Assembly (NCBI GenBank): GCA_903845115.1 | Contig: CAIMWE010000002.1 | Span: 1-43,117, forward strand | Direction: 5' to 3' | Source: an uncultured Acidobacteriota bacterium | Lineage (GTDB): Bacteria; Acidobacteriota; Thermoanaerobaculia; UBA5066 | Length of the DNA stretch: 43,117 bases | Shown here: piece after piece, positions 14,642-41,166 of the stretch | Layout of the letters: the number at the start of each line of letters is the position of its first letter | Numbering within the stretch: position 1 is the first letter of the stretch | Translations under genes and position numbers: made by a program | Notes under the pieces: model-generated | The model's database searches: none | Seen by the model: the letters and a program-made list of their open reading frames with translations, nothing else | Told to the model about the DNA's origin: nothing

Positions 14642-14642
14642 C

Positions 14643-22990: not shown

Positions 22991-23092
22991 GCCCTTTCCC
23001 GTCTCGTGCTCGGGCTGGCGAGCCTCGGGCTGGAGGAGCTCGCCGGCGAGGAGCTGGCCGGCCAGGGTCTCGGGCCCCGCTTCAGGCCCTGA
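22991..23092 (+). pseudogene. 3' remnant of the HEMTH gene with 56-bp repeat copy 2
   Basis: Positions 22991-23046 repeat 19097-19152 with two mismatches, and the same frame continues as EELAGQGLGPRFRP to a TGA at 23090-23092. There is no start codon or gene body, so this is a fragment. The simplest reading is that it preserves the original C terminus of the HEMTH protein, now separated from the gene by the kinase pair. Its end overlaps the stop of the convergent FHA gene; a CTTCAG-GCC-CTGAAG hairpin (23080-23094) sits there. Confidence 0.65.
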
Positions 23093-24083: not shown

Positions 24084-24096
24084 ACTTTCCCTCCTG

Positions 24097-24119
24097 GGCC
24101 GTGACCTGGCGTCACGGCC
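24097..24119 (-). promoter_or_regulatory. Perfect 9-bp hairpin in the FHA gene leader
   Basis: GGCCGTGAC (24097-24105) and GTCACGGCC (24111-24119) form a perfect stem with a 5-base loop, just upstream of the ribosome site of the FHA gene. A TAATAT box (24149-24154, minus strand) further upstream could be a -10 element. The hairpin could act as an operator dyad or modulate translation. Confidence 0.4.
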
Positions 24120-24197
24120 GGACAGGTTCTTCGAAATGTCCAGGACGGGAATATTACGCTGGCGGGAGTGGGGGAGGGGCGTCCCGGTTTCGTAGGC

Positions 24198-25851: not shown

Positions 25852-27975
25852 TTGAAGGAGCTAGAGACGGCCCGTCTCCTTCCGCCGGGCGACATTCCCG
25901 CGCCGTTCGGGCTCCACCTCGTGCTGAGCGGCGCAGCCGGGGAAGAGCCCGGCCCCGTCCTCCTCTCGAGCGACGAGAGCTTCGCGCGCGTCTACCTCGC
26001 GGCCCTCCGGGGCGACGAGGGGAGCGTGGTGGAGCTGGCGGCGATCAAGCTCCTGGCGCCCGACCTTCCCGAGACCCTCGCGGCGGCTCCCTACTGCCAG
26101 GGGAACGAGTGGCTCGCCGAGCGCTGGGAGCGCGAGAGGAAGAGGCTGCGGGCCCTGCGCGAGGCCAGCCCTCTCTTCCCGCGCCTCCTGCAGCCGGATG
26201 GCGAAGCCGGCCGCCCGGCCGCCGAGATCCCTCCCCTCCTCCTTTGCCGGCCGTCGAGATCCTTCTTCGAGCCCCCCTGCCCGAACTGCAGCGGAGAGCT
26301 CGAGACCTGCCGCGACGAGGGCTTCCTGCGGGAAGCCGGCCTGCCGTCCTTCGCCGACTCGTGCCGCCGTTTTCTCTGGTGCCCTCGCTGCGCCCGCTCG
26401 GACGCGAGGCTCGGGGTCTGGTCGGCTTCGCCCGGTCCGGAGAAGGCCTCGATCTCGGTCGGGACGCCCGGCGACCTCCTCGAGGGGCTCGCCCGCGGGC
26501 TTCTCGGGGAGTGGGACGAGGCCGCCGTCGGGCGGTTCCCCTCGCCGTCCTGCGCCGCGGCAGCGACGGGAATCCGCAGGGACGGGGGCGGCTCGGTTGC
26601 CGAGTTTTCTCGGCGCTGGTCGGTCTTCTGCCTGACCGGCTCGCCGTACATCCTCACTGGCCTTTCCCCGGTTCGCATCGACGAGTGGACCGACGTCCTC
26701 GGAGGGCGCGACGCGCGCGACCTCGTGCCGGCCGGCGCGCCAGGGTCGGTCGCCGTGGACTCGGCGCGATTCCGCCTCGAGTGGCTCGACGCCTCTCTCC
26801 CCCCCTCGGGCCGGCTCCTCTACGGACACGACGGGACCGGGCTCGACGCGGTCGAGGTCTTCTTCCTGAAGATGCTGACCTTCCGGCAGCTCGTCGCGGG
26901 AGTCCTTCACTTCTACCGGCACGCCGGGCAGCCCCACCTCGACCTGCATCCCTGGCACGTCCTCCTCGACACCTACGGCGCGGGTGAGGGACTGCCGGCC
27001 TTCTGGACCTTCGAGGCGCGTCTCCACGGCCTGGCTTCCGCCGAGAAGACGAAGCTGTTCGGGATCGAGATCGTCCTTCCGCCGCCGGAGCCGCTCTTCC
27101 CGTACGCGGCCCCGGAGATCCTCGAGTTCCGCCTGGCGAGCCCCCGCCCGGCGGAGGTCTCCATCGGCGACGTGAGGGCGGCGGAGGAGGGGACCTACGT
27201 GCTGGAGGGCCGTCTGCGCGATTCGAGCGGCCTCTTCCCCCGGCCGGAGGGGACGGACTCGGTCCACGTCACGTTCCCGGACGACACGCTCGGGATCGGC
27301 CTCACGTCGCTGGTCCTGCGGCCGCAGCGCGGGGTGCCCGCGACGCACGAGGAGCTGGTCTTCCTGAGCGAGCCGGCGACGTTCGACGACGCCTCGCTGA
27401 AGAGGCTCCGGAAGAGCTTCGGGGTGAGGATTCCGGGAGCCCGCTACAAGGTCTTCCCCCGGTTCGGGGCGCCTTCGGACCTTCACTCGCTCGGGGTCCT
27501 TCTCCTGCGCGTCTTGGCCGTGGGAGAGGGGAGCGAGCTCCTGCCCGTCGTGCAGGCCGCCTGGCGCGCCGCGGGCGTCGCTTCGGCCGGCTCGGAGGGG
27601 AGCCCGGCCGGGAGGCTGCGGAAGGCCCTCTTCTCGGAGCCTGCGGCGGCAGGTCTCTTCGACAGGGCCTCCGTCTTCCATCGGCGCGAGGACCGCGCTC
27701 CCGGCCGGCCGAACGCCATTCCCCCCCTGCTCTGGGAGAAGGCGATTCTCCTGTCCCTCCGGCTCGCCACCCGGATTCCGGGTTTCTCCATCTGCTCGGG
27801 GCCGGGCGACTTCGAACCCGACGACCCGGCCGGGAGGATCCAGGAGGCCCTTCACGCCTGCGAGGAGATCGTAGGGGAGCTGCGTGCCCTTCTCTTCCAC
27901 CGCCAGCCGTTCCACTGGGAGGTTCACCAGATCCTGGCCGAGATGATGGCCGAAGAATCGGGGGGCCGGCCTTGA
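25852..27975 (+). CDS. Divergent kinase-like protein with zinc-ribbon-like insert
   Basis: TTG at 25852 is preferred because GGAGG lies just upstream; GTG at 25771 is an in-frame alternative (734 residues). From the TTG it has about 707 residues. I know no exact family. A kinase-like plan can be traced: AAIK66LLAPDL resembles the beta-3 lysine, H362-L-D364-L-H-P-W-H-V-L-L-D resembles the catalytic loop, and APSDLHSLGVLLLRVL (near 540-556) resembles the APE/alpha-F segment. No DFG is seen, and His replaces the usual catalytic-loop Asn, so it may be a pseudokinase. C143-P-N-C146 and C177-P-R-C180 suggest a zinc ribbon. It is first in the T6SS gene run, next to an FHA/TagH gene. Confidence 0.7.
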   Translation: MKELETARLLPPGDIPAPFGLHLVLSGAAGEEPGPVLLSSDESFARVYLAALRGDEGSVVELAAIKLLAPDLPETLAAAPYCQGNEWLAERWERERKRLRALREASPLFPRLLQPDGEAGRPAAEIPPLLLCRPSRSFFEPPCPNCSGELETCRDEGFLREAGLPSFADSCRRFLWCPRCARSDARLGVWSASPGPEKASISVGTPGDLLEGLARGLLGEWDEAAVGRFPSPSCAAAATGIRRDGGGSVAEFSRRWSVFCLTGSPYILTGLSPVRIDEWTDVLGGRDARDLVPAGAPGSVAVDSARFRLEWLDASLPPSGRLLYGHDGTGLDAVEVFFLKMLTFRQLVAGVLHFYRHAGQPHLDLHPWHVLLDTYGAGEGLPAFWTFEARLHGLASAEKTKLFGIEIVLPPPEPLFPYAAPEILEFRLASPRPAEVSIGDVRAAEEGTYVLEGRLRDSSGLFPRPEGTDSVHVTFPDDTLGIGLTSLVLRPQRGVPATHEELVFLSEPATFDDASLKRLRKSFGVRIPGARYKVFPRFGAPSDLHSLGVLLLRVLAVGEGSELLPVVQAAWRAAGVASAGSEGSPAGRLRKALFSEPAAAGLFDRASVFHRREDRAPGRPNAIPPLLWEKAILLSLRLATRIPGFSICSGPGDFEPDDPAGRIQEALHACEEIVGELRALLFHRQPFHWEVHQILAEMMAEESGGRP

Positions 27976-28012: not shown

Positions 28013-29923
28013 GTGACGTCTAGCCCGCGTTCGCTCGCCGCGGAGGTGTGGCTGGGGCCGATGGAGGGCCTGCGATACGTCGTGGAGACGCCGGGCTTCA
28101 ACCAGGCCATCCGCATCGGCCGCCTGCCGTTCGACCGCCGGTCGAAGGAGAAGAACCACCTCCTCCTCTCGGCCGTGGCTGGAGTCTCGGGAAGCCACGC
28201 CGAGGTCCGCCTCGCGGGGGCTCGCTGTTTCCTGAAGGATCTCGGCAGCGCCAACGGGACCTTCTCGGTGGGAAAGGCCGTGACCTCCGAGGTGGAGCTC
28301 AAGCCGTGGGAGGTCTTCCTCGTCTCGCTCACGCCGGTGCAGGCGTTCCTCGCGAGCCCGGAGGCGGTCCTTCCGCCGTTCGAGCCCGTGGCGGCCGCGG
28401 ACTGGCAGGACCCGGCCCTCTCTCCCATCATCGCCTCCGCGACCGAGGCGGCGACCCGATGCGGCGAGCGGTACATCGACACCCGGCACCTCCTCGAGGC
28501 CCTGCTCCGCTCGAGCGACGCCCGGTTCGAGGAGCCCTTCGCCTTGGCCGGCTGGTCGAGGCGCTCCGCCCTCGAGCTCCTCTTCACGAAGGATCTCTTC
28601 GAGGAGAGGTTTGCCTGGCTGGCCGAGGACCTGATCAAGCCCGTCGTGCTGACGGCGAAGTTCGCCGACGTCGTCGTCTCGCCGAAGGTCGCGCGGCTTT
28701 TCGATGCCGTCCGGGCGCGGGGCGCGGGGCTCGGCGGCACCGAGAGAACCGCCGCCGCGATGGGCGCGATCTTCACGGCGATCCTCTCGGACTCGCAGGG
28801 TCCGGTCGGAAAGTGGCTCGTGGCGCGCTCGGTGAGGCCGCTTTCGGAGGCCACGGTCGTCGAGGCCTTCCGCGGCGGGGAGAAGCCGGTGCGCAAGGAG
28901 CTCCCGGCCCCTCCGCCGGCCGTGCCGCCCGCGGAGCCCAGCGCCCCCCCGGCGGCCGTCAGCCCTCCGGCGGTGCCTCCTCCTCCCGGCCCGGTGAAGC
29001 CGCCCGCCCCTCCCGCCGCCGTCGAGCCCCCTCCGCGGGAGAAGGAGAAGCTCCCCGATCCCTCGAGCCCCGGCGACCGGGCGCTGACCGCACGGGCACG
29101 GGACCTCGCCGGCGAGCTCTTCGAGCTCTACGGGGCGCATCGCTTCGACTCGGCCGACGACAGGAGAAAGGTGCTCAGCGCCCGTGTCGGAAGGGATCTC
29201 GCCGCGCTGTCCAGGGAGGACCGGGAGAAGCTCCTGCATGCGCTCGGGCGCCAGCTCCCTCTCGTCTCCGAGGGGCCGAAGGTGGACGAGGAGATCACGC
29301 GGCTGAAGCGCCGGATAGATGAGCTCGAACGGCAGAAGGCCGAGGAAGTCCCGGCCAGGAGCGCCGCCGGCCCGCAGAAGGCGACGGCCCTCCCGCTTCT
29401 CCTCCGGCAGCTGGCCTCGGGCGAGGACCTCTCGGCGGCCGATCGGGAGGCGATGGTCCTCCGGCAGGTGCTGGAGTTCGCGATCAGCATGGAGGGGATG
29501 GTCCTCGGGCTCGTCCAGTCGCTGACGATGCCGGGGAACGAGACGATGCAGTTCCGGCTCCCGCAGTTCCGCGAGACGATCCAGTCCGTCCTCCATTCGA
29601 TCGCCGAGGGAAAGGGCGTCAACTCGCAGCGCACCCAGGACTACCTCGAGGAGCTCAAGAGGTGGCAGATCGCTCTCCTCGCCGCCTTCCACCAGGCCCC
29701 GGCGGACTGGTTCGACAGGCTCTGGAAGCGCATCAACCCCACCACGATCGAGTCCGCCCCCCGTTCGGCGGGCTGGAAGCTGCGCGGCGAGGCGGCGGAC
29801 TGGTGGGAGCTCTACCGGCAGGGAGTCAAAGACCTCGGGCCCGACGTCGTCCACGACCAGGTGCTCCAGGCCGTGGCGCGGATCGCCCGTGCAGAGTTCG
29901 AGAAGCTCAAGAAAAGCCAATAG
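28013..29923 (+). CDS. tagH: T6SS FHA protein, TagH-like, with Clp-N-like module
   Basis: 636 residues, GTG start at 28013. An N-terminal FHA domain (about 15-110) shows IRIGRLPF, SGSHAEV and SANGTF. Residues about 135-290 look like a double Clp-N repeat: RYIDTRHLLEALLRSSDARF and a second RTAAAMGAIFTAILSDSQGPVGKWL unit. A Pro-rich linker and a short coiled coil (ITRLKRRIDELERQK) follow. The C-terminal 150 residues (EFAISMEGMVLGLVQSL onward) match the region seen in T6SS-associated FHA proteins. Fha proteins elsewhere relay phospho-Thr signals to T6SS assembly. A Clp-N-like module is familiar from the TssH/ClpV ATPase rather than from FHA proteins. It sits between the kinase-like gene and tssJ. 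Confidence 0.75.
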   Translation: MTSSPRSLAAEVWLGPMEGLRYVVETPGFNQAIRIGRLPFDRRSKEKNHLLLSAVAGVSGSHAEVRLAGARCFLKDLGSANGTFSVGKAVTSEVELKPWEVFLVSLTPVQAFLASPEAVLPPFEPVAAADWQDPALSPIIASATEAATRCGERYIDTRHLLEALLRSSDARFEEPFALAGWSRRSALELLFTKDLFEERFAWLAEDLIKPVVLTAKFADVVVSPKVARLFDAVRARGAGLGGTERTAAAMGAIFTAILSDSQGPVGKWLVARSVRPLSEATVVEAFRGGEKPVRKELPAPPPAVPPAEPSAPPAAVSPPAVPPPPGPVKPPAPPAAVEPPPREKEKLPDPSSPGDRALTARARDLAGELFELYGAHRFDSADDRRKVLSARVGRDLAALSREDREKLLHALGRQLPLVSEGPKVDEEITRLKRRIDELERQKAEEVPARSAAGPQKATALPLLLRQLASGEDLSAADREAMVLRQVLEFAISMEGMVLGLVQSLTMPGNETMQFRLPQFRETIQSVLHSIAEGKGVNSQRTQDYLEELKRWQIALLAAFHQAPADWFDRLWKRINPTTIESAPRSAGWKLRGEAADWWELYRQGVKDLGPDVVHDQVLQAVARIARAEFEKLKKSQ

Positions 29924-29933
29924 GAGGCCCGTG

Positions 29934-30419
29934 ATGAGACAGGTGGGAACAAAGGGACGTTCGGTCCGGCTGGCTCTGGCGATCCTGGCGGCGGCCGGCA
30001 GCTTGGCCCTTTCGGGATGCGGCTCCTCGACCGGGACGGTCGCCTTCCGGTGCGGCCCGCAGATCAACGGGGGGCTCGCTCTCGCCGTGGACGTCGTCCG
30101 GGCCACCGAGCAGGAGGCCCGCAACATCCAGACGATGGGTGAGAAGTGGTTCTACGACCAGAGCCGGCTGAGCTTCCAGGGGCAGAACCGGATCCAGACG
30201 CTGACGTTCACCGCCGGCGAGGTCTCGGGCCGCTGCGACCGCGAGGTGACCGTGAAGGTCAACAAGGGCGAGATGTTCCTGGTCCTGATCGCGGACTACA
30301 AGTTCCAGGCGACCGATCCCGCCAGGTACGTGATCGCCCTTCCCCGCGAGAAGTGGGTCGGCCAGAAGGTGCTCGTCTCGGTCCTCGAGAGGGAGCTGGC
30401 CGTGGAGACGCGCTGGTGA
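29934..30419 (+). CDS. tssJ: T6SS outer-membrane lipoprotein TssJ
   Basis: 161 residues. The ATG at 29934 is chosen over the adjacent in-frame GTG because a GGAGG site lies six bases before it. A lipoprotein signal ends in the lipobox L26-S-G-C29. The mature part is short and beta-rich (TVAFRCGPQINGGLALAVDVVRAT, ..YVIALPREKW), as in TssJ. TssJ anchors the TssL-TssM membrane complex to the outer membrane. It lies directly before tssK, tssL and tssM, the classic membrane-complex order. Confidence 0.85.
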   Translation: MRQVGTKGRSVRLALAILAAAGSLALSGCGSSTGTVAFRCGPQINGGLALAVDVVRATEQEARNIQTMGEKWFYDQSRLSFQGQNRIQTLTFTAGEVSGRCDREVTVKVNKGEMFLVLIADYKFQATDPARYVIALPREKWVGQKVLVSVLERELAVETRW

Positions 30420-30429
30420 AGGCCGGCAG

Positions 30430-31788
30430 ATGAAGAAGAGCCCGCAGGTCCTCTGGGCCGAGGGGATGTTCCTGAGGCCCCACCACCTCCAGGCGGCCGA
30501 ACGCTACCGCGACGAGGCGCTGCACCGGGAGATCCAGCGCATTCAGCCCTTCTCCTGGGGCGTCGGCCTCCTCGAGGTGGCGCCGGACCAGCTCGAGAAC
30601 TTCGTCTTCGAGGTCCGCTCGGCGGCGCTCAAGCTCAAGGACGGCACGGCCCTGGAGCTCGGGACGACGCTCCTCCTTTCCCCCCGCAGCTTCAAGGCCG
30701 AGCTCGACAAGGCGAGCGGGCGGATGAGGGTCTTCCTCGGCGTCCCGGTCGCGCGCGAGGCGGGGGCCAACGTCTTCGCCCCCGGCGAGTCCCCGGGCGG
30801 GCAGGACCGCCGGTGGGCGGCCGAGACGGTCGAGGTCCTGGACGAGAACACCGGAGTCAACGCGCAGCCCGTCGCCGTGAGACGCTGCAACGGGCGCCTC
30901 ATCTTCGGGAACGAGAGCCACGAGGGGTTCGAGTGCCTCGAGATCGGCGTCGTGGAGCGTTCCGGGCAGGGGAGGAACCTCCCGGTCCTCTCGCGGGAGT
31001 TCATCCCTTCGGTCACCGAGGTGGGAGCGTCGGCGACCCTGCAGACGCTCTGCGACGGCGTGACGAACCGCGTCGAAGCCAAGCACCGCCTGCTCCTGAC
31101 GGACACGGCCCAGGGGCGCCTCTCGCTCTCGGCCGAGGGGCCCGCGGGCTGGCAGACCTTCCTGAAGCTCCAGGTCCTCGCGAACTCGCTCTTCCTCCTC
31201 CAGCAGCTGACGCGGATCCCGAGGATCCACCCGTTCACCGTCTACGCCGAGTTCTGCCGGCTGGCCGGCCAGCTCTCGGTCTTCGACGACGGCAAGAAGC
31301 CGGTCTCGGTGCCGCTTTACGACCACGAGCGGCTGGGGCCCTGCTTCCACGAGACCTGCCGCGTCGTGGAGGCGCTGCTCGAGAAGATCGTCGCCTCGCG
31401 CTTCAACAGGATCGAGTTCGTCCTGCGCGACGACCTGCTCGTGGCCGACCTCCTGCCCGAGCACGTGGAGGGGCCGGTCGAGCTCTTCCTCGCCATCGAG
31501 ACCAACGTCGAGGAGAAGGTCCTCAAGGGCCGGATCGTCACGATGAAAATGGGGTCGGTCACGGACATCCCCATCCTGCGCCAGCGACGGCTCTTCGGAC
31601 TCGACCTCGAGATGCTCAAGCGGACGCCGGCCGGCCTTCCGCAGCGGGAGGACTCCTTCTACTTCAAGCTGGAGAAGGAAGGGCCCTACTGGTCGAACGT
31701 CGTCCGGGACCACGTGGTCGCCCTGTCGGACGCGCTCGACCCGCAATTGAAGTTCGCCCTCTACGTCACCAACAAGCCGGGGAGCTGA
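30430..31788 (+). CDS. tssK: T6SS baseplate protein TssK
   Basis: 452 residues, of normal TssK length. The start VLWAEGMFLRPHHLQAAERY is a hallmark of the family. A later stretch GWQTFLKLQVLANSLFLLQQLTRIPRIHPFTVYAEFCRLAGQLSVF, described here by its ends G1148-like helix and SVF, is in the usual neck region, and the C-terminal head reads FALYVTNKPGS. TssK is a trimeric cytosolic adaptor that connects the baseplate to the TssJLM membrane complex. The stop is one base before the tssL ATG, so the two are probably coupled. Confidence 0.95.
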   Translation: MKKSPQVLWAEGMFLRPHHLQAAERYRDEALHREIQRIQPFSWGVGLLEVAPDQLENFVFEVRSAALKLKDGTALELGTTLLLSPRSFKAELDKASGRMRVFLGVPVAREAGANVFAPGESPGGQDRRWAAETVEVLDENTGVNAQPVAVRRCNGRLIFGNESHEGFECLEIGVVERSGQGRNLPVLSREFIPSVTEVGASATLQTLCDGVTNRVEAKHRLLLTDTAQGRLSLSAEGPAGWQTFLKLQVLANSLFLLQQLTRIPRIHPFTVYAEFCRLAGQLSVFDDGKKPVSVPLYDHERLGPCFHETCRVVEALLEKIVASRFNRIEFVLRDDLLVADLLPEHVEGPVELFLAIETNVEEKVLKGRIVTMKMGSVTDIPILRQRRLFGLDLEMLKRTPAGLPQREDSFYFKLEKEGPYWSNVVRDHVVALSDALDPQLKFALYVTNKPGS

Positions 31789-31789
31789 G

Positions 31790-32485
31790 ATGGACTACGT
31801 GACCGAGCTTTTCCGGGTGGCCTCGAAGGAATTCATGTTCTTCTCGGCCTTCCGCCAGAAGGTCCGCAAGGGGGTCCGAATCGCGGCGGACGACGTGGCC
31901 GCCGACCTGGAAGCCATCTTCCGGGAGCAGGCCGTGGCGGTCCGCGAGGACCCCCGCCTGGAGGCGCTGTGGGGGCCCGGTCCGAACGACCTCAAGGCGC
32001 GGTACGTCCTCGTGGTCCTCGCGGACGAGATCCTCATCCACTCCGGCTGGGATTCGGCGGAGGAGTGGCAGAACCGCATCCTGGAGGAGAAGTACTTCCG
32101 GACGAACATCGGCGGCGACCAGTACTTCGCCATCGCCAAGGAGCTCCAGCCCGACGACGTGGAGCTCGCCGCCATCGTCTTCGCGGGCCTCGCCCTGGGA
32201 TTCCGCGGGAAGTACCGCGAACGTCCCGAGAAGCTGGCCGAGGTGCGCAAGAACGTCTACCGGCTACTGTCGGAGTACCTCGCCACGCAGGCCGACAAGG
32301 TGACCCCCGAGGCCTACCACGTCGTGGCGCAGCAGCAGAAGCGCCTGAACCCCGTCCTGACGCTCGGGCGCGTGGCGATCGTCGGGTTCGGGTTCTTCTT
32401 CCTCTACGTCCTGATCACGTTCCTCCTCTGGGGCCGCCTCGTCGGGGACATCCGGGCCGTGGCGCAGGCGATGGGAGTGGCCTGA
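31790..32485 (+). CDS. tssL: T6SS inner-membrane protein TssL (DotU/IcmH family)
   Basis: 231 residues: a cytosolic helical domain (YVLVVLADEILIHSGWDSAEEW and FAGLALGFRGKY are typical DotU-family segments) and one C-terminal membrane helix at about 190-215. There is no peptidoglycan-binding extension after the helix. TssL contacts TssK and TssE in the cytosol and TssM in the membrane. ATG one base after tssK; tssM starts three bases after its stop. Confidence 0.95.
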   Translation: MDYVTELFRVASKEFMFFSAFRQKVRKGVRIAADDVAADLEAIFREQAVAVREDPRLEALWGPGPNDLKARYVLVVLADEILIHSGWDSAEEWQNRILEEKYFRTNIGGDQYFAIAKELQPDDVELAAIVFAGLALGFRGKYRERPEKLAEVRKNVYRLLSEYLATQADKVTPEAYHVVAQQQKRLNPVLTLGRVAIVGFGFFFLYVLITFLLWGRLVGDIRAVAQAMGVA

Positions 32486-32488
32486 GCC

Positions 32489-35400
32489 ATGTACGAGCTG
32501 CTCGAGCTCCTCCAGCGTCTCCCGAAGCCCATCAAGGCCCTCGGCATCGTCTTCCTCCTCATCCCGGTCTCCTACCTCCTGACGCGCGGGCTCGGCATCG
32601 AGAAGTACTGGTGGGTCGTCGTGCTCGGCATGATCGTCATCGCCGTCGCCGTCTGGGCGTTCGGGGAGTTCGTCAAGAAGGGCGACTCGAAGCGCGGCCA
32701 GGCCTTCGAGGGGGAGCTCCGCCGCGACGCCGAGAAGGTCGGCGCCTCCAAGCAGGAGGTGAGGGAGGCGCTCAAGGAGCTCTCGGCCAAGTGGGCGGAC
32801 GCCTCCCTGCAGCTCCAGAAGACGGGGCTCTCGATCTACTCGCTCCCGTGGTATCTGCTGATCGGCGAGCCGCAGTCGGGCAAGTCGACGACGCTCAAGA
32901 ACTCCGGCCTGGAGTTCCCCGTCGGCGGGGACGGCCTTTCGGGCTCGGGCGGGACGCGGAACTGCGACTGGTGGTTCGCCAACGAGGCGGTGATCCTGGA
33001 CACGGCCGGGCGCTTCACGTTCCAGGAGGACGCCGCCCCGGATGCCTCGGAGTGGTCGACGTTCCTGAAGCTCCTGAAGAGGTACCGCCGCTATTGCCCG
33101 ATCAACGGGGTCCTGGTGGTCGTTCCCTGCACGTCCCTCCTCGAGGACTCCCCGGAGGAGCTGGACCGCAAGGCCGCGAACATCCGCGGCAAGCTCATCA
33201 ACCTGCAGCGCGTCCTCGAGATTCGCTTCCCGGTCTTCGTCATGATCACGAAGGCCGACCGGATCCTGGGCTTCTCGGAGTTCTTCTCGAAGCTCGACCC
33301 GGTGGACCAGAAGCAGCTCGTCGGCTGGTCGAATCAGGTGGGACCCGAGAAGCCCTACGACATCCGCACGTTCGACGAGGTCTTCGAGAACCTCCTGACC
33401 CGGATCCACAAGCTCCGGCTGAAGTTCACGGCGAACGAGGAGATCGTCCAGAACGTCGACCGGATCTTCGTCTTCCCGGACGAGCTCCGCGCCATCAAGG
33501 ACCCGATCAAGCGCTACTTCCAGGGCATCTTCGTCGAGACCCGGTACGACGAGCCCTTCGTCTTCCGCGGCTTCTACTTCTCGAGCGGCGTCCAGCAGGG
33601 CAAGCCGATCGCCCGCGCCACCCGGGAGCTCCTCGGCGCGTCGGCCGAGGGAGTCCTCGACAACCTCGAGCAGATCTTCAAGCGTTCCCGCCCGTTCTTC
33701 ATCAAGGACTTCTACGAGAAGAAGGTCTTCCCCGAGCAGGGGCTGATCTCCCGGACCAAGGCGGCCGACGAGCGGGAGAAGCACGTCCGGTGGGCCACGT
33801 GGGGGCTGGGCGCGCTCATCGTCCTGATGGTCATCGGCGGCATCGCCGTCCCGTACTACTCGCTCCAGGCCTACGTGCGGCCGATCCAGGCGACCGTGAA
33901 GAAGGCGGAGGAGTGCGCGGGGAAGGGGCCGTGCCGGGTGGCGGAGGCCTATGACATCTCGGTCCGCCTGCACCAGCACAGGCTGGAGATCCAGAAGAAG
34001 TCCTGGCTCTTCCTGATGTTCTTCCGGGGCGCCAGGACGAACGAGCTGTCGACGCTCCTCGCGAGCATCAACCGGAAGGTGTACCTGGAGAAGGTCGTGG
34101 TGCCGGTCCTGGCGGACGTCGAGGCCCGGATGGGGAGCCTCGACTGGGAGAAGGCCTACGACTACAAGGCCTTCCTCAACGCGCTCGAATCCCAGCTCCG
34201 GTGGGCCGCGATCCAGAAGCCCTCGCCCGGCGACAAGCCGATCGTCCGGCCCGAGGACCTCCGCCTCGCCGCGGCGGTCCCGTTCATCCAGAGCACCAAG
34301 GGCGTCCCCTGGAGCCAGCGGTCCGCGGAGGTCGACGAGTGGGCCGCCGTGGCGGCCAGCAACGCGCCCGACGTGATCCTGGCCGGAGTCCTCACCGACA
34401 AGGCCGAGGTGGACGCCCTCAAGATCCCCTCCCCCGAGCGCCCCATCAAGACCTTCGAGAGCTACTGGACGGTGGCGAGCCTCCTGAGGTGGGACTACAG
34501 GCTCAACACGCTGCTCGGCCTGTACGCGGGCAAGTACCGGGAGCTGATCGCGACGGCGGACGACCCCGCCTCGCGGAGCCTCCTCTCCCGCTCCGCCCTC
34601 ACCGGCAAGGAGTTCCGGAAGGTCTACGAAGAGGTCGGCAAGCACCTGGCGACGCCTCGCGTCGCCTCGCTCGACTTCCCGGGCGTGACGCCGGACGTCT
34701 GGGAGCGAAACCTCAGGGCGGACTACGTGCGGCTCCTGGAGTTCAAGGCGGTGATCCCGGCCGTGAGCGACAACCGGCTCGAGACGATGATCGGCCAGCT
34801 CAAGGCCGACCACGCGACCCTGAACTCCACGAGCGCGCAGTACGTCTACCTCGTCGCCGAGGACCCGCAGAACAAGGCGAAGAAGGCCTGGACGCCCTCG
34901 GCGGCAGCGGTGTCGCCGATGCTCGTGGCCGTCTCCGACTACTCGGACCTCGAAGCGTTCGTGACGGCGGACAAGCCCCAGGCCGTCGTCGAGGAGGCGA
35001 AGGGCAAGTCCTCGCCAGCCGAGCGGAAGAAGACGATCGAGGACTTCTCGGCGAAGCAGCGGGCGCTCAAGGACAAGGCGGTGGAGAACCTGAAGGCGCT
35101 CCCGGCGATCCCTGCGGAACACCAGGGAGAGACGGGATTCAAGAAGTCGCAGCTCGAGGCGTTCGTCGACCGGACCGCCTCGGTGGCTTTCCTCTTCCGG
35201 ACGCTCCCGTACGCCCAGACGTTCCTCGAGCGGGAGATCGGACCCGGGTGCGACTCGGTCTGCTACCAGCGGGCGTTCGCCAAGATGATGGTCGACCTCG
35301 GCATCGCCTCCATCTCGGAGGCCGAGAAGGTCAGCTCGCGCGCCGACGTCAAGGAGATGGCGGGCGCCGTGGGCAGGCTGATGTACGACTACCTCGTCCG

Positions 35401-36766
35401 CTACATCGACCACTTCTCCGCCCGCTCCCCGCGGGGGGGGGGCGGTGGGTTCTACGTGCCGGTCGCGGCCGTCCAGAAGGCCTCGAGCTGGCGCGAGTTC
35501 CAGGGCGTGGTCCAGAAGTGGAATCCGCAGGGGGACGGAGGCGGCGAGGGGGGGCCGGCGCAGGGCGGCGATCCCGCGGGGGCCCTTCAGCAGGCCGACG
35601 TCGAGGACTACGCAGCCAGGAGCGGCTACCTCACGAAGCTCCTCGACTACTACCGGAACAAGCAGGCCCCGCTCAGAGCGGCGAGGGCCGGAGGGGGCGA
35701 GAAGGCCTCGCCCGAGCTCGTGGCCGCCGTCACCCAGTTCAAGAACAACGTGCTCCCGCTCCCCGACGTCGAGCTGAAAGCGTGGCGAAACCTGGTCGCG
35801 GGAGTCGACGGCGTCTCCCTGCGGGGTTACCACGCGTTCACGAGGAATCCCGCCGTCAGGCGCCATCCGACCTGGGGGGCCTCCCTCCAGATGGTGGAGA
35901 GGCGCGGGGCGAACCTGATCCGGGACGCGATCCGGCCGTCCTTCCAGCAGGCGCAGGAGCCGGTCGTCAAGAAGATCCAGACCACCTGCGTCGGGCAATT
36001 CCCGTTCATCCGGGAGAGCCAGCTCCGGCAGGAGCGGGTGAGCTACACGACGGGCTCCCTCATGAAGCAGAGCGGAGTCGGGGCGACCCCCGCCTACCGC
36101 CTCGACCTCGCGACGATCCCGCAGGGGCACTTCTCCGGCGTCCTGACCGACGTCGGGGTGCTGGCCGACGAGTACGCCATCAACCCCATCCTCTTCTGGG
36201 GCGAGGTCGACTTCGACTTCATCGGGGAGCCGCCCCGGAGCCTCCTCGCGGTGGCCCGCGGCTGGCAGATCTTCCTTTCGGGAGGGACCCGGGGCTCCTC
36301 GGTGATCAAGGAGCACAAGGTGGAAGTCCGGCCGGTGACGTTCACGCCGAGCCCGGGCAGGAGGTTCATGGGCGACCGCGTCAACGCGCTCTTCCTCTTC
36401 GACCGGAGCGTCTACATCCGGCCGTCCACCGACTTCAAGACCGGCAGGCAGCCCAGCCCCTTCGTCTGGCGGCTCGGCCCCCAGGACGCGCCGCTCTCCG
36501 TGACCGGCCGCAAGGAGGAGTCCGTCGGCGGCTGGAGCTCGAGCCTCGATCTCTACGGCGGCCCGCTGCGGTTCTTCTACTTCGTCCGTCTCGCGAGCGA
36601 GGACCGGGATCGGCGCGAGATGGACGACCCGGAGAAGGAGAGGGACCGCGACAAGACCTGGACGATCCGCGTCGTGATCCCGGATGCGGAGAAGCGCGAC
36701 GAACCGCTGGAGGGTCTCTTCGAGCTGGTCCTCGACGAGCCGCTCCCAGGGGTCCTCCCGGGGTAG
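32489..36766 (+). CDS. tssM: T6SS inner-membrane NTPase TssM (IcmF family)
   Basis: 1425 residues, longer than the usual 1100-1200. Two N-terminal membrane helices (about 16-33 and 41-59) precede a cytosolic NTPase domain with Walker A G126-EPQSGK132-ST, DTAG at 171-174 and a TKAD motif near 254. A third helix follows near 433-452, then the large periplasmic region that binds TssJ. A Gly-rich stretch near residue 981 (encoded over a G10 tract) and another near 1015 lie in an insert that helps explain the extra length. The NTPase motifs are intact. Central gene of the membrane complex. Confidence 0.95.
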   Translation: MYELLELLQRLPKPIKALGIVFLLIPVSYLLTRGLGIEKYWWVVVLGMIVIAVAVWAFGEFVKKGDSKRGQAFEGELRRDAEKVGASKQEVREALKELSAKWADASLQLQKTGLSIYSLPWYLLIGEPQSGKSTTLKNSGLEFPVGGDGLSGSGGTRNCDWWFANEAVILDTAGRFTFQEDAAPDASEWSTFLKLLKRYRRYCPINGVLVVVPCTSLLEDSPEELDRKAANIRGKLINLQRVLEIRFPVFVMITKADRILGFSEFFSKLDPVDQKQLVGWSNQVGPEKPYDIRTFDEVFENLLTRIHKLRLKFTANEEIVQNVDRIFVFPDELRAIKDPIKRYFQGIFVETRYDEPFVFRGFYFSSGVQQGKPIARATRELLGASAEGVLDNLEQIFKRSRPFFIKDFYEKKVFPEQGLISRTKAADEREKHVRWATWGLGALIVLMVIGGIAVPYYSLQAYVRPIQATVKKAEECAGKGPCRVAEAYDISVRLHQHRLEIQKKSWLFLMFFRGARTNELSTLLASINRKVYLEKVVVPVLADVEARMGSLDWEKAYDYKAFLNALESQLRWAAIQKPSPGDKPIVRPEDLRLAAAVPFIQSTKGVPWSQRSAEVDEWAAVAASNAPDVILAGVLTDKAEVDALKIPSPERPIKTFESYWTVASLLRWDYRLNTLLGLYAGKYRELIATADDPASRSLLSRSALTGKEFRKVYEEVGKHLATPRVASLDFPGVTPDVWERNLRADYVRLLEFKAVIPAVSDNRLETMIGQLKADHATLNSTSAQYVYLVAEDPQNKAKKAWTPSAAAVSPMLVAVSDYSDLEAFVTADKPQAVVEEAKGKSSPAERKKTIEDFSAKQRALKDKAVENLKALPAIPAEHQGETGFKKSQLEAFVDRTASVAFLFRTLPYAQTFLEREIGPGCDSVCYQRAFAKMMVDLGIASISEAEKVSSRADVKEMAGAVGRLMYDYLVRYIDHFSARSPRGGGGGFYVPVAAVQKASSWREFQGVVQKWNPQGDGGGEGGPAQGGDPAGALQQADVEDYAARSGYLTKLLDYYRNKQAPLRAARAGGGEKASPELVAAVTQFKNNVLPLPDVELKAWRNLVAGVDGVSLRGYHAFTRNPAVRRHPTWGASLQMVERRGANLIRDAIRPSFQQAQEPVVKKIQTTCVGQFPFIRESQLRQERVSYTTGSLMKQSGVGATPAYRLDLATIPQGHFSGVLTDVGVLADEYAINPILFWGEVDFDFIGEPPRSLLAVARGWQIFLSGGTRGSSVIKEHKVEVRPVTFTPSPGRRFMGDRVNALFLFDRSVYIRPSTDFKTGRQPSPFVWRLGPQDAPLSVTGRKEESVGGWSSSLDLYGGPLRFFYFVRLASEDRDRREMDDPEKERDRDKTWTIRVVIPDAEKRDEPLEGLFELVLDEPLPGVLPG
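35433..35442 (+). repeat. G10 homopolymer in tssM
   Basis: Ten consecutive G bases encode part of RGGGGGF around residue 981 of TssM. A one-base slip would truncate the periplasmic part. It may also be a sequencing weak point. Confidence 0.85.
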
Positions 36767-36775: not shown

Positions 36776-37768
36776 GTGGCCTCGAACATGTTCTCGCGCT
36801 TCGTCGACAGGCTCTCCTCGTCGGGAGGGCCCCGGAGCGAGCAGTGCCCGCTCCAGCTGTACGGTAAGCTCCCCATCTACAAGGACTTCATCTCCTCCGG
36901 CCTGGGCGACGAGGGGGCCATCGAGTTCCGCGAGTGGATCGGGAACGGGTACAGCAAGAAGTGGGCGACCCGCGAGGGGTGCCGCGGGACCGAGATCCCC
37001 CCTTACACCTTCGTCCTCCCCTTGCCGGCCTCCCGGCGCGCCGTGGTCGGCTGCCTCTGGGGCAGCCACGACGAGGGGGGCCTCAGGCCCTTTCCCTTCG
37101 CGGCCTTCGCGGTGCTCCCGTCCGGGCGGAAGGTCTCGGACCCGACGACGGCGCTCTCCTACCTCGAGGTTTTCTACGAATGCGGCGCCTCCATTCGCCG
37201 CAATTTCCAGGGTGGTCGGACCGTGGCCTCCTTCTACGACTCCTTCCGGGGCGCGAGGGTCGAGCTGCCGATCGTCGGCCCGGAGGCCCTGGCCAAGGGG
37301 CTGGGCGAGGACCTCCAGAACGTCGCGGTCCAGGAATTCGCCACCGCCATCCTGGGAGAAGCCGCGGCGGTCCGCTGGCCCGGGCACCTCGAGGCCCTGG
37401 AGAAGGCCGTCCGGCAGAACGTGGGCGGAGGCGCCGTCCGGATCCCGCTCGGGGCGCTTCTCCCGCGGGAGATGCAGGTCCAGGTCTGGCTCTCCTGGCT
37501 CCGCCGGCGCGAGGCTCTCCCCGTTGGGGCTCTTCGCGGCGTCCTCGTGGAACGTTCCGGGGAGAGGGGCCGGGCCGTCCTCTTCTTCCGCGACCTGAAG
37601 GCCGACGACTTCCTCCTGCTCCATCCCGGCCGTTCGGACTACGACTGGGTGGAGGAGGTCGGCGGCGAGGCCCCCGCCGGAGGAGCCGGCCAGGAGGCCG
37701 AAGGTGAGCCGCCACCCGGGTGGGACGATCCCCTCCCGGCGCTCTTGGCCGGCGGTCGAGGCATTTGA
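36776..37768 (+). CDS. tagF: T6SS-associated protein TagF
   Basis: 330 residues, GTG start at 36776, nine bases after tssM; an in-frame ATG at 36788 is an alternative. The TagF domain is recognisable: LYGKLPIYKDFISSG, IEFREWI, YTFVLPLP and GCLWGSHDEGG..PFPFAAFAVLP. Elsewhere TagF acts as a post-translational repressor of T6SS, in some species within the threonine phosphorylation pathway, which suits the FHA and kinase-like genes in this locus. The C-terminal 40 residues are Gly/Glu/Pro-rich without a known domain. It ends the first T6SS transcription unit; a promoter and hcp follow. Confidence 0.88.
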   Translation: MASNMFSRFVDRLSSSGGPRSEQCPLQLYGKLPIYKDFISSGLGDEGAIEFREWIGNGYSKKWATREGCRGTEIPPYTFVLPLPASRRAVVGCLWGSHDEGGLRPFPFAAFAVLPSGRKVSDPTTALSYLEVFYECGASIRRNFQGGRTVASFYDSFRGARVELPIVGPEALAKGLGEDLQNVAVQEFATAILGEAAAVRWPGHLEALEKAVRQNVGGGAVRIPLGALLPREMQVQVWLSWLRRREALPVGALRGVLVERSGERGRAVLFFRDLKADDFLLLHPGRSDYDWVEEVGGEAPAGGAGQEAEGEPPPGWDDPLPALLAGGRGI

Positions 37769-37888: not shown

Positions 37889-38377
37889 ATGGCAGCTGTT
37901 GACTATTTCCTGAAGATCGATGGTGTCCAGGGCGAGAGCGCGGACAGCGAGCACCAGGGGGAGATCGACGTCCTCTCCTGGTCCTGGGGCGAGACCCAGA
38001 GCGGATCGATGGCGTACGGCGGCGGCGGTGGATCCGGGAAGGTCTCCATGCAGGACTTCCATTTCGTGATGCACGTCTGCAAGGCGAGCCCGAAGCTCCT
38101 CGAGGCCTGCGCATCGGGACAGCATTTCGGGTCGGCCACGCTGGTGGCCCGCAAGGCGGGAGACGGGCAGAAGAAGTACCTCCAGATCAAGTTCACGGAC
38201 ACGCTGGTGTCGTCGTTCCAGACGGGAGGATCCGGATCGGGTGACGTGGTTCCGGTCGACCAGATCAGCCTGAACTACTCCAAGATCGAGTACGAGTACC
38301 AGGCCCAGGAGAAGGGCGGCTCGACGGGCGGCGCGGTCCGGGCGGGCTGGGACCTCAAGACGAACAAGAAGGCGTGA
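37889..38377 (+). CDS. hcp: T6SS tube protein Hcp (TssD)
   Basis: 162 residues, ATG at 37889 behind a strong ribosome site. The opening AVDYFLKIDGVQGES, the SWSWGETQSGS block and the later DFHFVMHVCKASPKLLEACASGQHF segment are typical of Hcp. Hexameric rings of Hcp stack into the inner tube and carry small effectors. No C-terminal effector extension is present, so it is a structural Hcp. It has its own promoter and is followed by stem-loops, so it is probably expressed at a higher level than the membrane-complex genes. Confidence 0.95.
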   Translation: MAAVDYFLKIDGVQGESADSEHQGEIDVLSWSWGETQSGSMAYGGGGGSGKVSMQDFHFVMHVCKASPKLLEACASGQHFGSATLVARKAGDGQKKYLQIKFTDTLVSSFQTGGSGSGDVVPVDQISLNYSKIEYEYQAQEKGGSTGGAVRAGWDLKTNKKA

Positions 38378-38383
38378 ACCACT

Positions 38384-38413
38384 CCCCGCACTCCCGGTTT
38401 GCCGGGGGCGGGG
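38384..38413 (+). terminator. Compound stem-loop after hcp
   Basis: An outer CCCCGC/GCGGGG stem (38384-38389 with 38408-38413) encloses an inner CCCGG-TTTG-CCGGG hairpin (38393-38406), seven bases after the hcp stop. There is no T-run, so Rho-independent termination is uncertain; it may instead stabilise the transcript. Confidence 0.45.
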
Positions 38414-38435
38414 TCGGTCACGCAAGGGGACGGAC

Positions 38436-38466
38436 GGCGCCGCGGACCCGGGGAGGCCGCGGCGCC
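38436..38466. terminator. Strong hairpin between convergent hcp and tagJ
   Basis: GGCGCCGCGG (38436-38445) and CCGCGGCGCC (38457-38466) form a perfect 10-bp stem with an 11-base loop. It lies between the stops of two convergent genes, where a bidirectional terminator is expected. No T-run on either side. Confidence 0.5.
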
Positions 38467-38475
38467 CGGAGTCTC

Positions 38476-39282
38476 CTACTTCGGGTTGCCGCGCGGGTCG
38501 AAGGTGATGTCCGAAAGCTCGAAGAGGCCGACGGCGTCGTCGTCGACGAGGAAGGATCTCTGGCCGGCTCCCACCGTGAGGTCGTCCGCCAGGCTCTTCC
38601 AGTCGGTCATCCGGCCCAGCCGGATCAGGTCGTCGGCGCTGGAGGGCGAGCCGCTGTACAGGGCGAAGAGGAAGACGTCGCCCCGGGTCCCGTCGTCGGC
38701 CTCGATCTGGGCGCCCGGCCAGAGCAGGTCCCGGAGCTTCCTGGGGGGGCTGATCTGGATGCGCCGGGCCTGCTCCAGCGGGAACCAGGTGTACCGGCCC
38801 TTGAAGACCATCTCGAGGAACGGGCCGCAGAAGTCGTCGAAGTCGCGGAGGTCGGCGAAGGTCCGGTCCCCGGCCCGCCCCGGCATGGCGGGGCGCTCGT
38901 CCTCGGCGCTGTCGAGCAGCCCGCGGGCCTCGGCGAGCCTCCCCTGCCGGACCGCCTGCAGGGCGGCCAGGTGAGCCTCGACGTAGGCCGGGGGCGGCCT
39001 CAGGAAGGCCGGGCGCGCCTCGGCCGCGAAGACCCGGGCGCGTTCGCCCTCCGCTGCCAGCACCGAACGGTACATCTGAGCGGCCAGCTGCGAGGCCGGG
39101 TCGGCGGCGGCGGCGGCCGCGATCTGCTTCTCCGCCCGGCTCCACTCGCCGGCGAAGGCGAGGAGCTCGAAGAGGGCCGTGCGCAAGCGGGGGTCCGCGG
39201 GCGCGGCCTTGACTTCCCTGGTCAGCTCCTGGATCGCTGCCGTCAGGTTTCCGGCGTCCAGCAGCTCTTTCGTCGTCGGCAT
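38476..39282 (-). CDS. tagJ: T6SS accessory protein TagJ/ImpE
   Basis: ATG at 39280-39282 behind a GGAGGAGG site; 268 residues. The longer frame to 39363 is not needed. An N-terminal TPR-like helical region (TKELLDAGNLTAAIQELTREVKAAPADPRLRTALFELLAF) is followed by the ImpE-type C-terminal domain (FLEMVFKGRYTWFPLEQARRIQI, DLLWPGAQIEADDGTRGDVFLFALYSGS; only the ends of these long blocks are quoted as landmarks). TagJ proteins bind the sheath and the TssH ATPase in some systems. It is the only minus-strand gene in the T6SS locus, divergent from tssA. Confidence 0.85.
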   Translation of the reverse strand: MPTTKELLDAGNLTAAIQELTREVKAAPADPRLRTALFELLAFAGEWSRAEKQIAAAAAADPASQLAAQMYRSVLAAEGERARVFAAEARPAFLRPPPAYVEAHLAALQAVRQGRLAEARGLLDSAEDERPAMPGRAGDRTFADLRDFDDFCGPFLEMVFKGRYTWFPLEQARRIQISPPRKLRDLLWPGAQIEADDGTRGDVFLFALYSGSPSSADDLIRLGRMTDWKSLADDLTVGAGQRSFLVDDDAVGLFELSDITFDPRGNPK

Positions 39283-39353
39283 GGTGCGACCTCCTCCGCG
39301 GGGCCCGGATACCGCGGTACCGGTGGCCGGCCCGCGAGTCCCGAAAATTCCAA

Positions 39354-39382
39354 GTGACACCAACGATAGGATGAAATAAAGT
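39354..39382 (+). promoter_or_regulatory. Candidate promoter for tssA-tssB-tssC-tssE
   Basis: GTGACA (39354-39359, five of six consensus bases) and TAAAGT (39377-39382) are spaced by exactly 17 bases in a locally AT-rich stretch of the 134-base tagJ-tssA gap. A GGAGGA ribosome site at 39405-39410 precedes the tssA ATG. No sigma-54-type -24/-12 element was found. Confidence 0.5.
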
Positions 39383-39416
39383 CAGTGGTCAATTGCGGCC
39401 CGCTGGAGGATCATAA

Positions 39417-40517
39417 ATGGCTTCGCAGGTTGCGGTTCTAGATCTGGAGGTCTTGCTGGAGCCGATCGGGGGGGAAAACCCCTCCGGCGAGAGCTTCCAG
39501 TACCAGGGTCTTCACGACGAGATCCGGGAGGCCCGGCGGGCGGACGACGACCTCAACCAGGGGGAATGGAAGCGGGAGCTGAAAACCGCGGACTTCGACC
39601 GGGTCATCCAGCTGGCCGGGGAGGCCCTGAGGGCCAAGACCAAGGACCTCCAGGTGGCCGCGTGGCTGGTGGAGGCGGTGACGGTCGAACGGGGGTTTGC
39701 GGGGTGCCGCGACGGCCTCCGGCTGGTCTGCGGCCTTCACGAGAAGTACTGGGACACCTTCTACCCGGAGATCGACGAGGGCGACCTCGAGGCACGAGCG
39801 AACGTCCTCTCGTTCATGGACCGCCAGGTGGCCGACGCCCTCAAGAAGGTGCCACTGACCCTGTCCCCCGGTCTCAATTTCTCGTACATTCAATGGGAGG
39901 AGTCCCGTCCGTTCGACGTTCCCGACGGGCCGGGGGTGGGGGTCGACGCGGAGACCCAGGGGCGCCTGGCCGACCTCCGGGCGAAGGCCCTGGAAGAAGG
40001 CAAGACGAGCGGGGAGGAGTTCCGGAAGGCGAAGGGGGGAACCCGGCGCCCGTTCTACGAGGAGACTCACGCTCTCCTCGCTGAAGCCTGGGAGGCTTTC
40101 GTGAAGCTCGACCGGCAGATGGACGAGAGATTCGGGAGGCAGACCCCCGGGCTCGGCCTCGTCAAGAAGTCCCTCGAGGAGATCCGGCCGGTCGTCGAGA
40201 AGATCCTGAAGGAGAAGCGGATCCTCGAGCCCGACCCGGCGGAGGCAATGGCGCCTCCGGAGGCGGGGGATCCGTCGCCGGCGGCCTCGCCAACGGCCTC
40301 GACGGGGCCGGTCAGTTCCCGGCAGGAGGCCCTCGTCCGTCTCGCCGAGGTGGCAGACTACTTCCGCCGGACGGAACCGCACAGCCCCGTCTCCTACCTG
40401 GTCCAGCGCGCCGTCTCCTGGGGCCACATGCCCCTCGATACCTGGCTGGCCGAAGTGATCAAGGACGGGGGCGTCCTGGACAACCTCAGGGAGACCCTCG
40501 GGATCAAGAAGCAATGA
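39417..40517 (+). CDS. tssA: T6SS protein TssA (ImpA N-terminal family)
   Basis: 366 residues. The N-terminal ImpA domain is clear: LLEPIGGENPSGESFQYQ, then AAWLVEAVTVERGFAGCRDGL and KYWDTFYPEIDEGDLEARAN. A Pro/Ala linker (about 278-300) leads to a short C-terminal domain ending VSYLVQRAVSWGHMPLDTWL, as in short TssA proteins. TssA primes tube and sheath polymerisation at the baseplate or caps the distal end. First gene of the sheath operon; 109 bases separate it from tssB. Confidence 0.93.
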   Translation: MASQVAVLDLEVLLEPIGGENPSGESFQYQGLHDEIREARRADDDLNQGEWKRELKTADFDRVIQLAGEALRAKTKDLQVAAWLVEAVTVERGFAGCRDGLRLVCGLHEKYWDTFYPEIDEGDLEARANVLSFMDRQVADALKKVPLTLSPGLNFSYIQWEESRPFDVPDGPGVGVDAETQGRLADLRAKALEEGKTSGEEFRKAKGGTRRPFYEETHALLAEAWEAFVKLDRQMDERFGRQTPGLGLVKKSLEEIRPVVEKILKEKRILEPDPAEAMAPPEAGDPSPAASPTASTGPVSSRQEALVRLAEVADYFRRTEPHSPVSYLVQRAVSWGHMPLDTWLAEVIKDGGVLDNLRETLGIKKQ

Positions 40518-40626
40518 TCAAATGAGGACGCCGCGAAGCGTTGAGATCCGATAGCATTACAGCATGGCGAGAAGCTCCCGTGAACGGCCGGTCCGCCGGG
40601 TGTGACGGCGTCAGTCAGGAGGCAGC

Positions 40627-41166
40627 ATGGTCAAGAAAGAAAGCATCCAGCAGAAACTGAAGCGGGTCCGGCCGCCGCGGGTCCAGATCACCTACGACGT
40701 GGAGATCGGAGGGGCGATCGAGCTCAAGGAGCTCCCGTTCGTGGTCGGCGTCCTCGGGGACTTCTCGGGCATGCCCGACCAGCCGCTTCCCCGGCTGAAG
40801 GACCGGAAGATCATCGAGATCGACCGCGACAATTTCGACCAGGTGCTCGCGGGGATGGCGCCCCGCCTGCAGATGCGAGTCGAGAACAAGCTCGCGGGCG
40901 ACGGCAGCAAGATGGGGGTCGAGCTGAAGTTCAAGAGCCTCGAGGATTTCGAGCCCGACCGGCTCGTCCTGCAGGTGGAGCCGCTCAAGAAGCTCGTCGA
41001 GGCGCGCCAGAGGCTGTCGGACCTGATGTCCAAGGCGGACGGCAACGACAAGCTCGAGCAGATCCTTCAGGACGTCCTGAAAAACGCGGGGCAGCAGCAG
41101 AAGCTGGCCGAGTCGCTGGGACTGACAAACGAGCCCGCGCCGAAGAACGAGGAGCCCCATGAGTAG
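40627..41166 (+). CDS. tssB: T6SS sheath small subunit TssB (VipA)
   Basis: 179 residues with a GGAGG site before the ATG. The family signature is complete: SIQQKLKRVRPPRVQITYDVE, LPFVVGVLGDFSG, FDQVLAGMAPRLQMRVEN and the C-terminal KKLVEARQRLSDLMSKADGN. TssB pairs with TssC to form the contractile sheath around the Hcp tube. It overlaps tssC by eight bases, which fits coupled 1:1 synthesis. Confidence 0.97.
   Translation: MVKKESIQQKLKRVRPPRVQITYDVEIGGAIELKELPFVVGVLGDFSGMPDQPLPRLKDRKIIEIDRDNFDQVLAGMAPRLQMRVENKLAGDGSKMGVELKFKSLEDFEPDRLVLQVEPLKKLVEARQRLSDLMSKADGNDKLEQILQDVLKNAGQQQKLAESLGLTNEPAPKNEEPHE

What the first reader, a model, noticed from the sequence alone, without database searches (positions are those of the whole stretch)
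25852..27975. Degenerate kinase-like T6SS protein with a CxxC/CxxC insert
Kinase landmarks (AAIK, HLDLHPWHVLLD, APSDLHSLGVLL) are spread over a 700-residue protein, with a zinc-ribbon-like pair of CxxC motifs between the first two and about 180 residues between the catalytic loop and alpha-F. The lack of a DFG suggests a pseudokinase or unusual kinase. It sits beside an FHA/TagH gene at the head of a T6SS locus.
Basis: partly seen in the sequence, partly recalled or inferred. Interest (0 to 1): 0.65.

Follow-up and report, generated by a model that had tools for sequence, protein, structure and literature searches.

The report
Zinc-ribbon pseudokinase heading T6SS operon
The gene encodes a conserved cytosolic protein with a protein-kinase fold whose catalytic motifs are largely lost and which carries two extra inserted domains; it occurs almost only alongside one kind of type VI secretion system in a group of Acidobacteriota, so it is probably a non-catalytic part or regulator of that weapon rather than an active kinase.

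Summary
Window 25852-27975 (+) encodes a 707-aa protein from a TTG start. K66, the HLD...H loop (D364), two CxxC pairs (143/146, 177/180) and alpha-F D543 are all present. No Pfam or NCBIfam kinase model matches. An AlphaFold model built from 12 family members nevertheless gives only protein kinases as its 50 best VIA-align matches (best: IRAK3 pseudokinase, Z 13.5, 247 residues). A profile comparison hits kinases exactly at the catalytic loop (score 57.6; 200 column-shuffled controls reach at most 30.4). In 14 homologues HxD and alpha-F Asp are invariant, DFG-Asp is absent in 14, the catalytic-loop Asn is His in 14, and K66 is lost in two. The four Cys are kept together (12) or lost together (2). 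This points to a maintained pseudokinase. Among 149 genomes of the class it occurs in 14, of which 13 have T6SS. In the window's family it directly precedes fha-tssJKLM-tagF. Best explanation: a cytosolic scaffold or regulator of T6SS assembly, comparable to the T7SSb pseudokinase EssB/YukC paired with FHA domains. Binding and function are untested.

The parts
25852..27975 (+). Kinase-fold, probably pseudokinase gene (707 aa, TTG start), called PSK here
   Evidence: TTG start supported by relatives and an RBS-like GGCGGAGG
26047..26049 (+). K66, beta-3 lysine (AAIK); kept in 12/14, R in L023, Q in L025
26248..26616 (+). Insert 1 (about residues 133-255), inferred to lie in the beta4-beta5/hinge region; starts with the zinc-ribbon-like part
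   Evidence: pLDDT mostly 80-94 over residues 131-260; weak Pfam zf_Rg match 137-172, E 0.006; boundaries inferred
26278..26391 (+). Two CxxC pairs, C143/C146 and C177/C180
   Evidence: all four in 12/14 homologues, all four lost in 2/14
26839..26871 (+). Family signature GxDAxExxxLK (330-340) at the start of predicted alpha-E
   Evidence: invariant columns G330 D332 A333 E335 L339 K340
26932..26970 (+). Degenerate catalytic loop PHLDLHPWHVLLD (361-373): R->L and N->H compared with HRDxxxxN
   Evidence: profile comparison with kinases E 9.5e-7; P361 H362 L363 D364 H369 invariant in 14/14
27004..27033 (+). Segment WTFEARLHGL (385-394) where DFG should be; no Asp there in any homologue
27100..27117 (+). 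APE-like motif PYAAPE (417-422)
   Evidence: aligned to YMSPE of kinases when the profile alignment is extended; PE changed in L023-L025
27139..27465 (+). Insert 2 (about 430-538): small beta-barrel domain between APE and alpha-F
   Evidence: folds alone with pLDDT 87.5; weak matches to FNR-type FAD-domain and Upf1-1B barrels, Z up to 7.8
27469..27516 (+). alpha-F helix with invariant D543 (SDLHSLGVLL)
27760..27762 (+). R637, invariant Arg near the end of the kinase fold (alpha-I-like position)
   Evidence: the assignment to alpha-I is inferred
28013..29923 (+). fha/tagH-type gene; FHA phosphopeptide-binding residues (GR, SxxH, NGT) intact
   Evidence: Pfam FHA E 8e-8; alignment with relatives
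29889..30419 (+). Lipoprotein-like gene (LSGC lipobox), tssJ position
   Evidence: conserved between fha and tssK in relatives; TssJ identity inferred
30430..31788 (+). tssK
   Evidence: TIGR03353 E 2e-77
31790..32485 (+). tssL
   Evidence: TIGR03349 E 1e-24
32489..36766 (+). tssM
   Evidence: TIGR03348 E 6e-108
36776..37768 (+). tagF
   Evidence: TagF_N E 7e-10
37889..42652 (+). hcp (37889-38377), tssA (39417-40517), tssB (40627-41166), tssC (41159-42652)
   Evidence: Pfam

Best explanation
PSK is a cytosolic pseudokinase that serves as a scaffold or regulatory component of a particular T6SS. It keeps the two-lobed kinase fold but has probably lost canonical phosphotransfer. The fold and its two inserts (a zinc-ribbon-like/helical one and a beta-barrel one) act as protein-docking surfaces. 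In the window's family it most likely works with the adjacent Fha protein, whose phosphothreonine-binding pocket is intact, to control recruitment of TssK/TssL/TssM and sheath assembly. The phosphate that Fha reads would come from another Ser/Thr kinase. Shown: predicted fold, loss of motifs, conservation, synteny, co-occurrence. Inferred: lack of catalysis, zinc binding, binding to Fha or to the fused sheath-like protein, role in assembly.
For: Fold: the 50 best VIA-align rows of an unbiased model are all protein kinases, Z 11.2-13.5, spanning model residues ~8-680. Sequence: profile match to kinases at the catalytic loop; the 15 weak PDB profile hits are all kinases. Degeneration: DFG Asp absent 14/14, HRDxxxxN changed to HLDxxxxH 14/14, K66 lost 2/14, putative alpha-C Glu (E95) lost 3/14. 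Maintained by selection: dN/dS 0.09-0.28 in close pairs. Cytosolic: no 19-residue stretch above mean hydropathy 1.8 in 14 homologues (TssL 2.6, TssM 2.4). T6SS link: the gene before fha in the window-family loci, followed by tssJ-K-L-M-tagF-hcp-A-B-C where the contig continues. Present in 14 of 149 class genomes, 13 of them TssB+ (Fisher 6e-13, not corrected for relatedness). T6SS loci without it in the class show no fha, tagF or kinase in the stretches held. Fha residues intact. Precedent: the T7SSb pseudokinase YukC binds the FHA domains of YukB (PMC9600267).
Against: No interaction or activity is shown. K66 and D364 persist in 12/14 and 14/14, so residual or non-canonical chemistry is possible. 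In the deep branch (L083-L085) no fha gene was found nearby, so Fha cannot be its only partner. The model's catalytic segment (residues 363-396) has pLDDT under 50. The genome holds 41 Pkinase matches, so a canonical kinase for this T6SS is possible but unassigned.
Confidence: 0.62

Rival explanations
1. Active but atypical kinase, or another nucleotide-dependent transferase: K66 and D364 with the invariant H369 form an unconventional active site that modifies Fha or TssL, i.e. it replaces PpkA.
For: K66 12/14 and PHLDxxxxH 14/14 conserved; position next to fha in a locus with tagF but no PpkA/PppA-like gene seen inside it; Fha pocket intact, so something phosphorylates its ligand.
Against: Metal-binding DFG Asp and catalytic-loop Asn absent in all 14, no glycine loop, K66 replaced in L023 and L025, E95 lost in three.
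Confidence: 0.22
2. PSK is mainly a partner of the fused TssB-TssC-like protein, e.g. an adaptor for a second, sheath-like element, and its place beside fha in one family is secondary.
For: In the deep branch PSK lies directly downstream of the fused gene in 3 of 3 loci. A fused gene is found in 11 of 13 PSK+ T6SS+ genomes and 0 of 7 PSK- T6SS+ genomes (Fisher 5e-4). In G071, which has two T6SS loci, only the one with the fused gene has PSK.
Against: In the window's family the fused gene is at the other end of the locus or on another contig, and it was not found in G000 or G002; related genomes are not independent.
Confidence: 0.12
3. Not a kinase relative: motif look-alikes on another fold.
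For: No Pfam or NCBIfam kinase hit; Foldseek alone gave no confident kinase hit.
Against: VIA-align top rows, profile comparison against shuffled controls, correct order of HxD, APE and alpha-F Asp.
Confidence: 0.04

Closest known systems
EssB/YukC pseudokinase of type VIIb secretion systems (PMC9600267)
   Same: Secretion-system pseudokinase lacking several kinase motifs, encoded with and (there shown) binding FHA domains.
   Different: EssB/YukC is a membrane protein; PSK has no membrane segment, carries two large inserts, belongs to a T6SS, and its FHA neighbour keeps the phosphopeptide-binding residues that YukB/EssC lack (against PMC9600267).
PpkA of the T6SS threonine phosphorylation pathway (PMC3953482, PMC12607579)
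   Same: Kinase fold, encoded in T6SS loci with Fha and TagF; Fha is the likely functional neighbour.
   Different: PpkA is an active, membrane-associated kinase whose catalytic Asp and Asn matter (D161/N166, PMC3953482); PSK has His for that Asn, lacks DFG and has no membrane segment.
IRAK3 pseudokinase domain (PDB 6ziw)
   Same: Best structural match of the whole model, Z 13.5, rmsd 4.2, 247 residues.
   Different: 13% identity; tied within 1 Z with active kinases, so it shows the fold and not a special kinship.
Canonical Hanks-type Ser/Thr kinases of the same genome, e.g. window 19324-20949
   Same: Catalytic-loop region, APE and alpha-F align in order.
   Different: Those have HRD, Asn, DFG and a glycine loop; PSK does not.

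Membership tests
Protein kinase-like fold | Two-lobed kinase fold | tested here: met
   All 50 best VIA-align rows are kinases, Z 11.2-13.5, model range ~8-680; catalytic segment itself low confidence
Protein kinase-like fold | Sequence homology to kinases | tested here: met
   hhalign score 57.6 against shuffled maximum 30.4; HMMER against Pfam finds no kinase
Active Hanks-type Ser/Thr kinase | DFG Asp | tested here: not met
   No Asp in the segment in 14/14 under either possible register
Active Hanks-type Ser/Thr kinase | Catalytic-loop HxDxxxxN | tested here: not met
   HxD present, Asn is His in 14/14
Active Hanks-type Ser/Thr kinase | Beta-3 Lys | tested here: inconclusive
   Present here and in 12/14; R or Q in two divergent members
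Active Hanks-type Ser/Thr kinase | Glycine-rich loop | tested here: not met
   No conserved GxGxxG between predicted beta-1 and beta-2
Pseudokinase | Kinase fold with loss of at least one catalytic motif | tested here: met
Pseudokinase | No phosphotransfer in vitro | not testable with these tools
   needs purified protein
PpkA (T6SS kinase) | Encoded with fha in a T6SS locus | tested here: met
   fha is the next gene in the window-family loci; not in the deep branch
PpkA (T6SS kinase) | Intact catalytic residues | tested here: not met
PpkA (T6SS kinase) | Inner-membrane anchoring | tested here: not met
   No 19-residue segment above mean hydropathy 1.8
EssB/YukC family | Sequence or close structural kinship with EssB | tested here: inconclusive
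   Not among the 50 rows listed, which is no evidence either way
EssB/YukC family | Binds FHA domains | not testable with these tools
   only gene adjacency is shown
Zinc ribbon | Two CxxC pairs conserved as a set | tested here: met
   4/4 Cys in 12 homologues, 0/4 in 2; weak zf_Rg match
Zinc ribbon | Metal bound | not testable with these tools
   needs purified protein

The most novel reading that the evidence does not exclude
A previously undescribed T6SS pseudokinase family that physically couples a phosphothreonine reader (Fha) to a second, fused TssB-TssC-like sheath protein, so that phosphorylation elsewhere in the cell gates assembly of this T6SS through a zinc-stabilised, non-catalytic kinase fold. 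It would be the T6SS counterpart, independently arrived at, of the EssB-FHA pair of T7SSb.
Probability: 0.25. Interest if true: 0.75.

Novelty: new variant of a known kind. Interest (0 to 1): 0.52.

Why it matters
T6SS regulation by threonine phosphorylation is understood through active PpkA kinases. Here, at the head of T6SS loci of a group of Acidobacteriota known from metagenome-assembled genomes, a kinase-fold protein is kept under selection without its catalytic motifs beside a reader domain that still looks able to bind phosphothreonine. If it is a scaffold, pseudokinase-FHA pairing would be a recurrent design in two unrelated secretion systems. It also gives testable residues for a family that no library used here recognises.

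Tried and rejected
Pfam, NCBIfam, PADLOC and PHROGs gave no family above cut-off. phmmer against PDB gave only chance haemoglobin hits. tblastn against plasmids: none. Single-sequence scan of genome contigs: none; the alignment-based scan gave 13 loci, all with Acidobacteriota-type titles, but it rests on two short patterns, so distant relatives in other phyla may be missed. Phylum scan of 396 genomes: no full-length member outside the class; three weak partial hits are probably ordinary kinases or chance. Foldseek on the whole model ranked other proteins first, many of them barrels matching insert 2; VIA-align on the same candidates showed the kinase match. EssB/YukC did not appear among the 50 rows. 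The beta-barrel assignment of insert 2 is weak (Z at most 7.8, rows for several unrelated barrel families). A T6SS-effector or immunity reading was set aside because the gene sits with structural genes in the loci seen. The papers held contain none on Thermoanaerobaculia with T6SS, and no T6SS pseudokinase was evident among the titles and abstracts listed for that pair of terms.

Full report
Observation. The ORF at 25852-27975 (+) is a genuine gene: its codon-position GC pattern matches its neighbours, its TTG start matches the start of relatives, and one copy exists in the genome.

Is it a kinase? Sequence libraries say nothing. Eleven relatives' genomes besides the window's own gave a match, and thirteen loci came from genome contigs, mostly the same records; fourteen sequences make alignment A2. 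A model predicted from the first alignment without templates (mean pLDDT 75.7) matches only protein kinases in the 50 best VIA-align rows, Z 11.2-13.5 with 218-263 residues aligned, spanning the whole protein. The family profile matches a profile of 26 canonical kinases from the same genome exactly at the catalytic loop; 200 column shuffles never came near that score. Letting the alignment extend puts PYAAPE on the APE motif and D543 on the alpha-F Asp without being told to. Weak PDB profile hits are all kinases.

Is it active? The DFG Asp is missing in all 14 members under either register (WTF or LHG), HRDxxxxN is HLDxxxxH in all 14, the glycine loop is absent, K66 is Arg or Gln in two, and the putative alpha-C Glu is lost in three. 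The protein is under purifying selection in close pairs. It is therefore most likely a pseudokinase, but the invariant H362/D364/H369 keep a non-canonical chemistry possible. The catalytic segment is the least confident part of the model.

Inserts. The two CxxC pairs begin an insert of about 120 residues, inferred to lie between beta-4 and beta-5. The four Cys are conserved or lost together, as expected for one metal site. The long gap before alpha-F is the activation segment with APE plus a beta-barrel insert of about 109 residues, which folds alone with pLDDT 87.5 and resembles FNR-type FAD-domain and Upf1-1B barrels only weakly.

Context. In the window's family the order is psk-fha-tssJ-tssK-tssL-tssM-tagF-hcp-tssA-tssB-tssC (impE on the other strand in the window), read in full or in part in each locus that extends far enough. 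The Fha proteins keep GR, SxxH and NGT, the residues associated with phosphothreonine binding. In a deep branch (G045, G138, G071) psk directly follows a gene encoding a TssB-like plus TssC-like fusion, beside a canonical tssB-tssC pair; no fha was found there in the stretches held. Such a fusion is also present in most window-family genomes, elsewhere in or away from the locus. Among 149 genomes of the class, psk is in 14 and TssB in 20; 13 have both. T6SS loci without psk showed no fha, tagF or kinase in the stretches held, though several of these contigs are short. Related genomes are not independent, so the P values overstate the case.

Mechanism. The simplest reading is a cytosolic scaffold or regulator for T6SS assembly that works with Fha, the phosphate being supplied by another kinase. 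The T7SSb pair YukC (pseudokinase) and YukB (FHA) is a documented precedent (PMC9600267), but there the FHA pockets are not conserved, and here they are. In PpkA systems an active kinase acts upstream of the assembly scaffold Fha (PMC3953482, PMC12607579), and TagF represses by binding Fha (PMC5995506). None of the binding steps has been tested for PSK.

Taxonomy.

Verdict. A real, conserved, unnamed pseudokinase family tied to T6SS: a new variant of the known kind 'secretion-system pseudokinase'.

Noticed in passing
L083:10075-11859 (-), L084:589-2613 (+), L085:10790-12478 (+), L118:9166-10539 (-), L119:3735-5105 (+): Single ORFs matching both VipA (TssB) and VipB (TssC), i.e. a fused sheath-like protein beside canonical tssB and tssC; seen in 11 of 13 pseudokinase-positive T6SS genomes and in none of 7 T6SS genomes without it.
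   Followed up: partly
window 38476-39363 (-): ImpE/TagJ-type gene (Pfam ImpE E 9e-38) on the strand opposite to the T6SS operon, between hcp and tssA; the overlapping + strand ORF 38374-39357 is spurious by codon GC.
   Followed up: partly
window 19324-20949 (+): Canonical Ser/Thr kinase (HRD, DFG intact) about 5 kb upstream of the pseudokinase; not found near the gene in the window-family relatives read. A candidate source of phosphate for Fha.
   Followed up: no
window 23082-25513 (-): Three genes just upstream on the other strand: an FHA protein, a STAS-like protein and a cyclic-nucleotide-binding/FHA protein (STAS by eye); a relative of the first also precedes psk in G002.
   Followed up: no
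window 12443-18038 (+): Peptidase C39-type ABC exporter followed by an ABC transporter with an N-terminal FHA domain.
   Followed up: no
window 28013-29923 (+), residues about 130-190: The Fha protein has, after its FHA domain, a stretch (YIDTRHLLEALL) that reads like a Clp-N-type repeat; noticed by eye, no Pfam hit.
   Followed up: no
L119:1266-2837 (+): Canonical Ser/Thr kinase with a HAMP-domain gene upstream, two genes from the fused sheath gene in G004.
   Followed up: no
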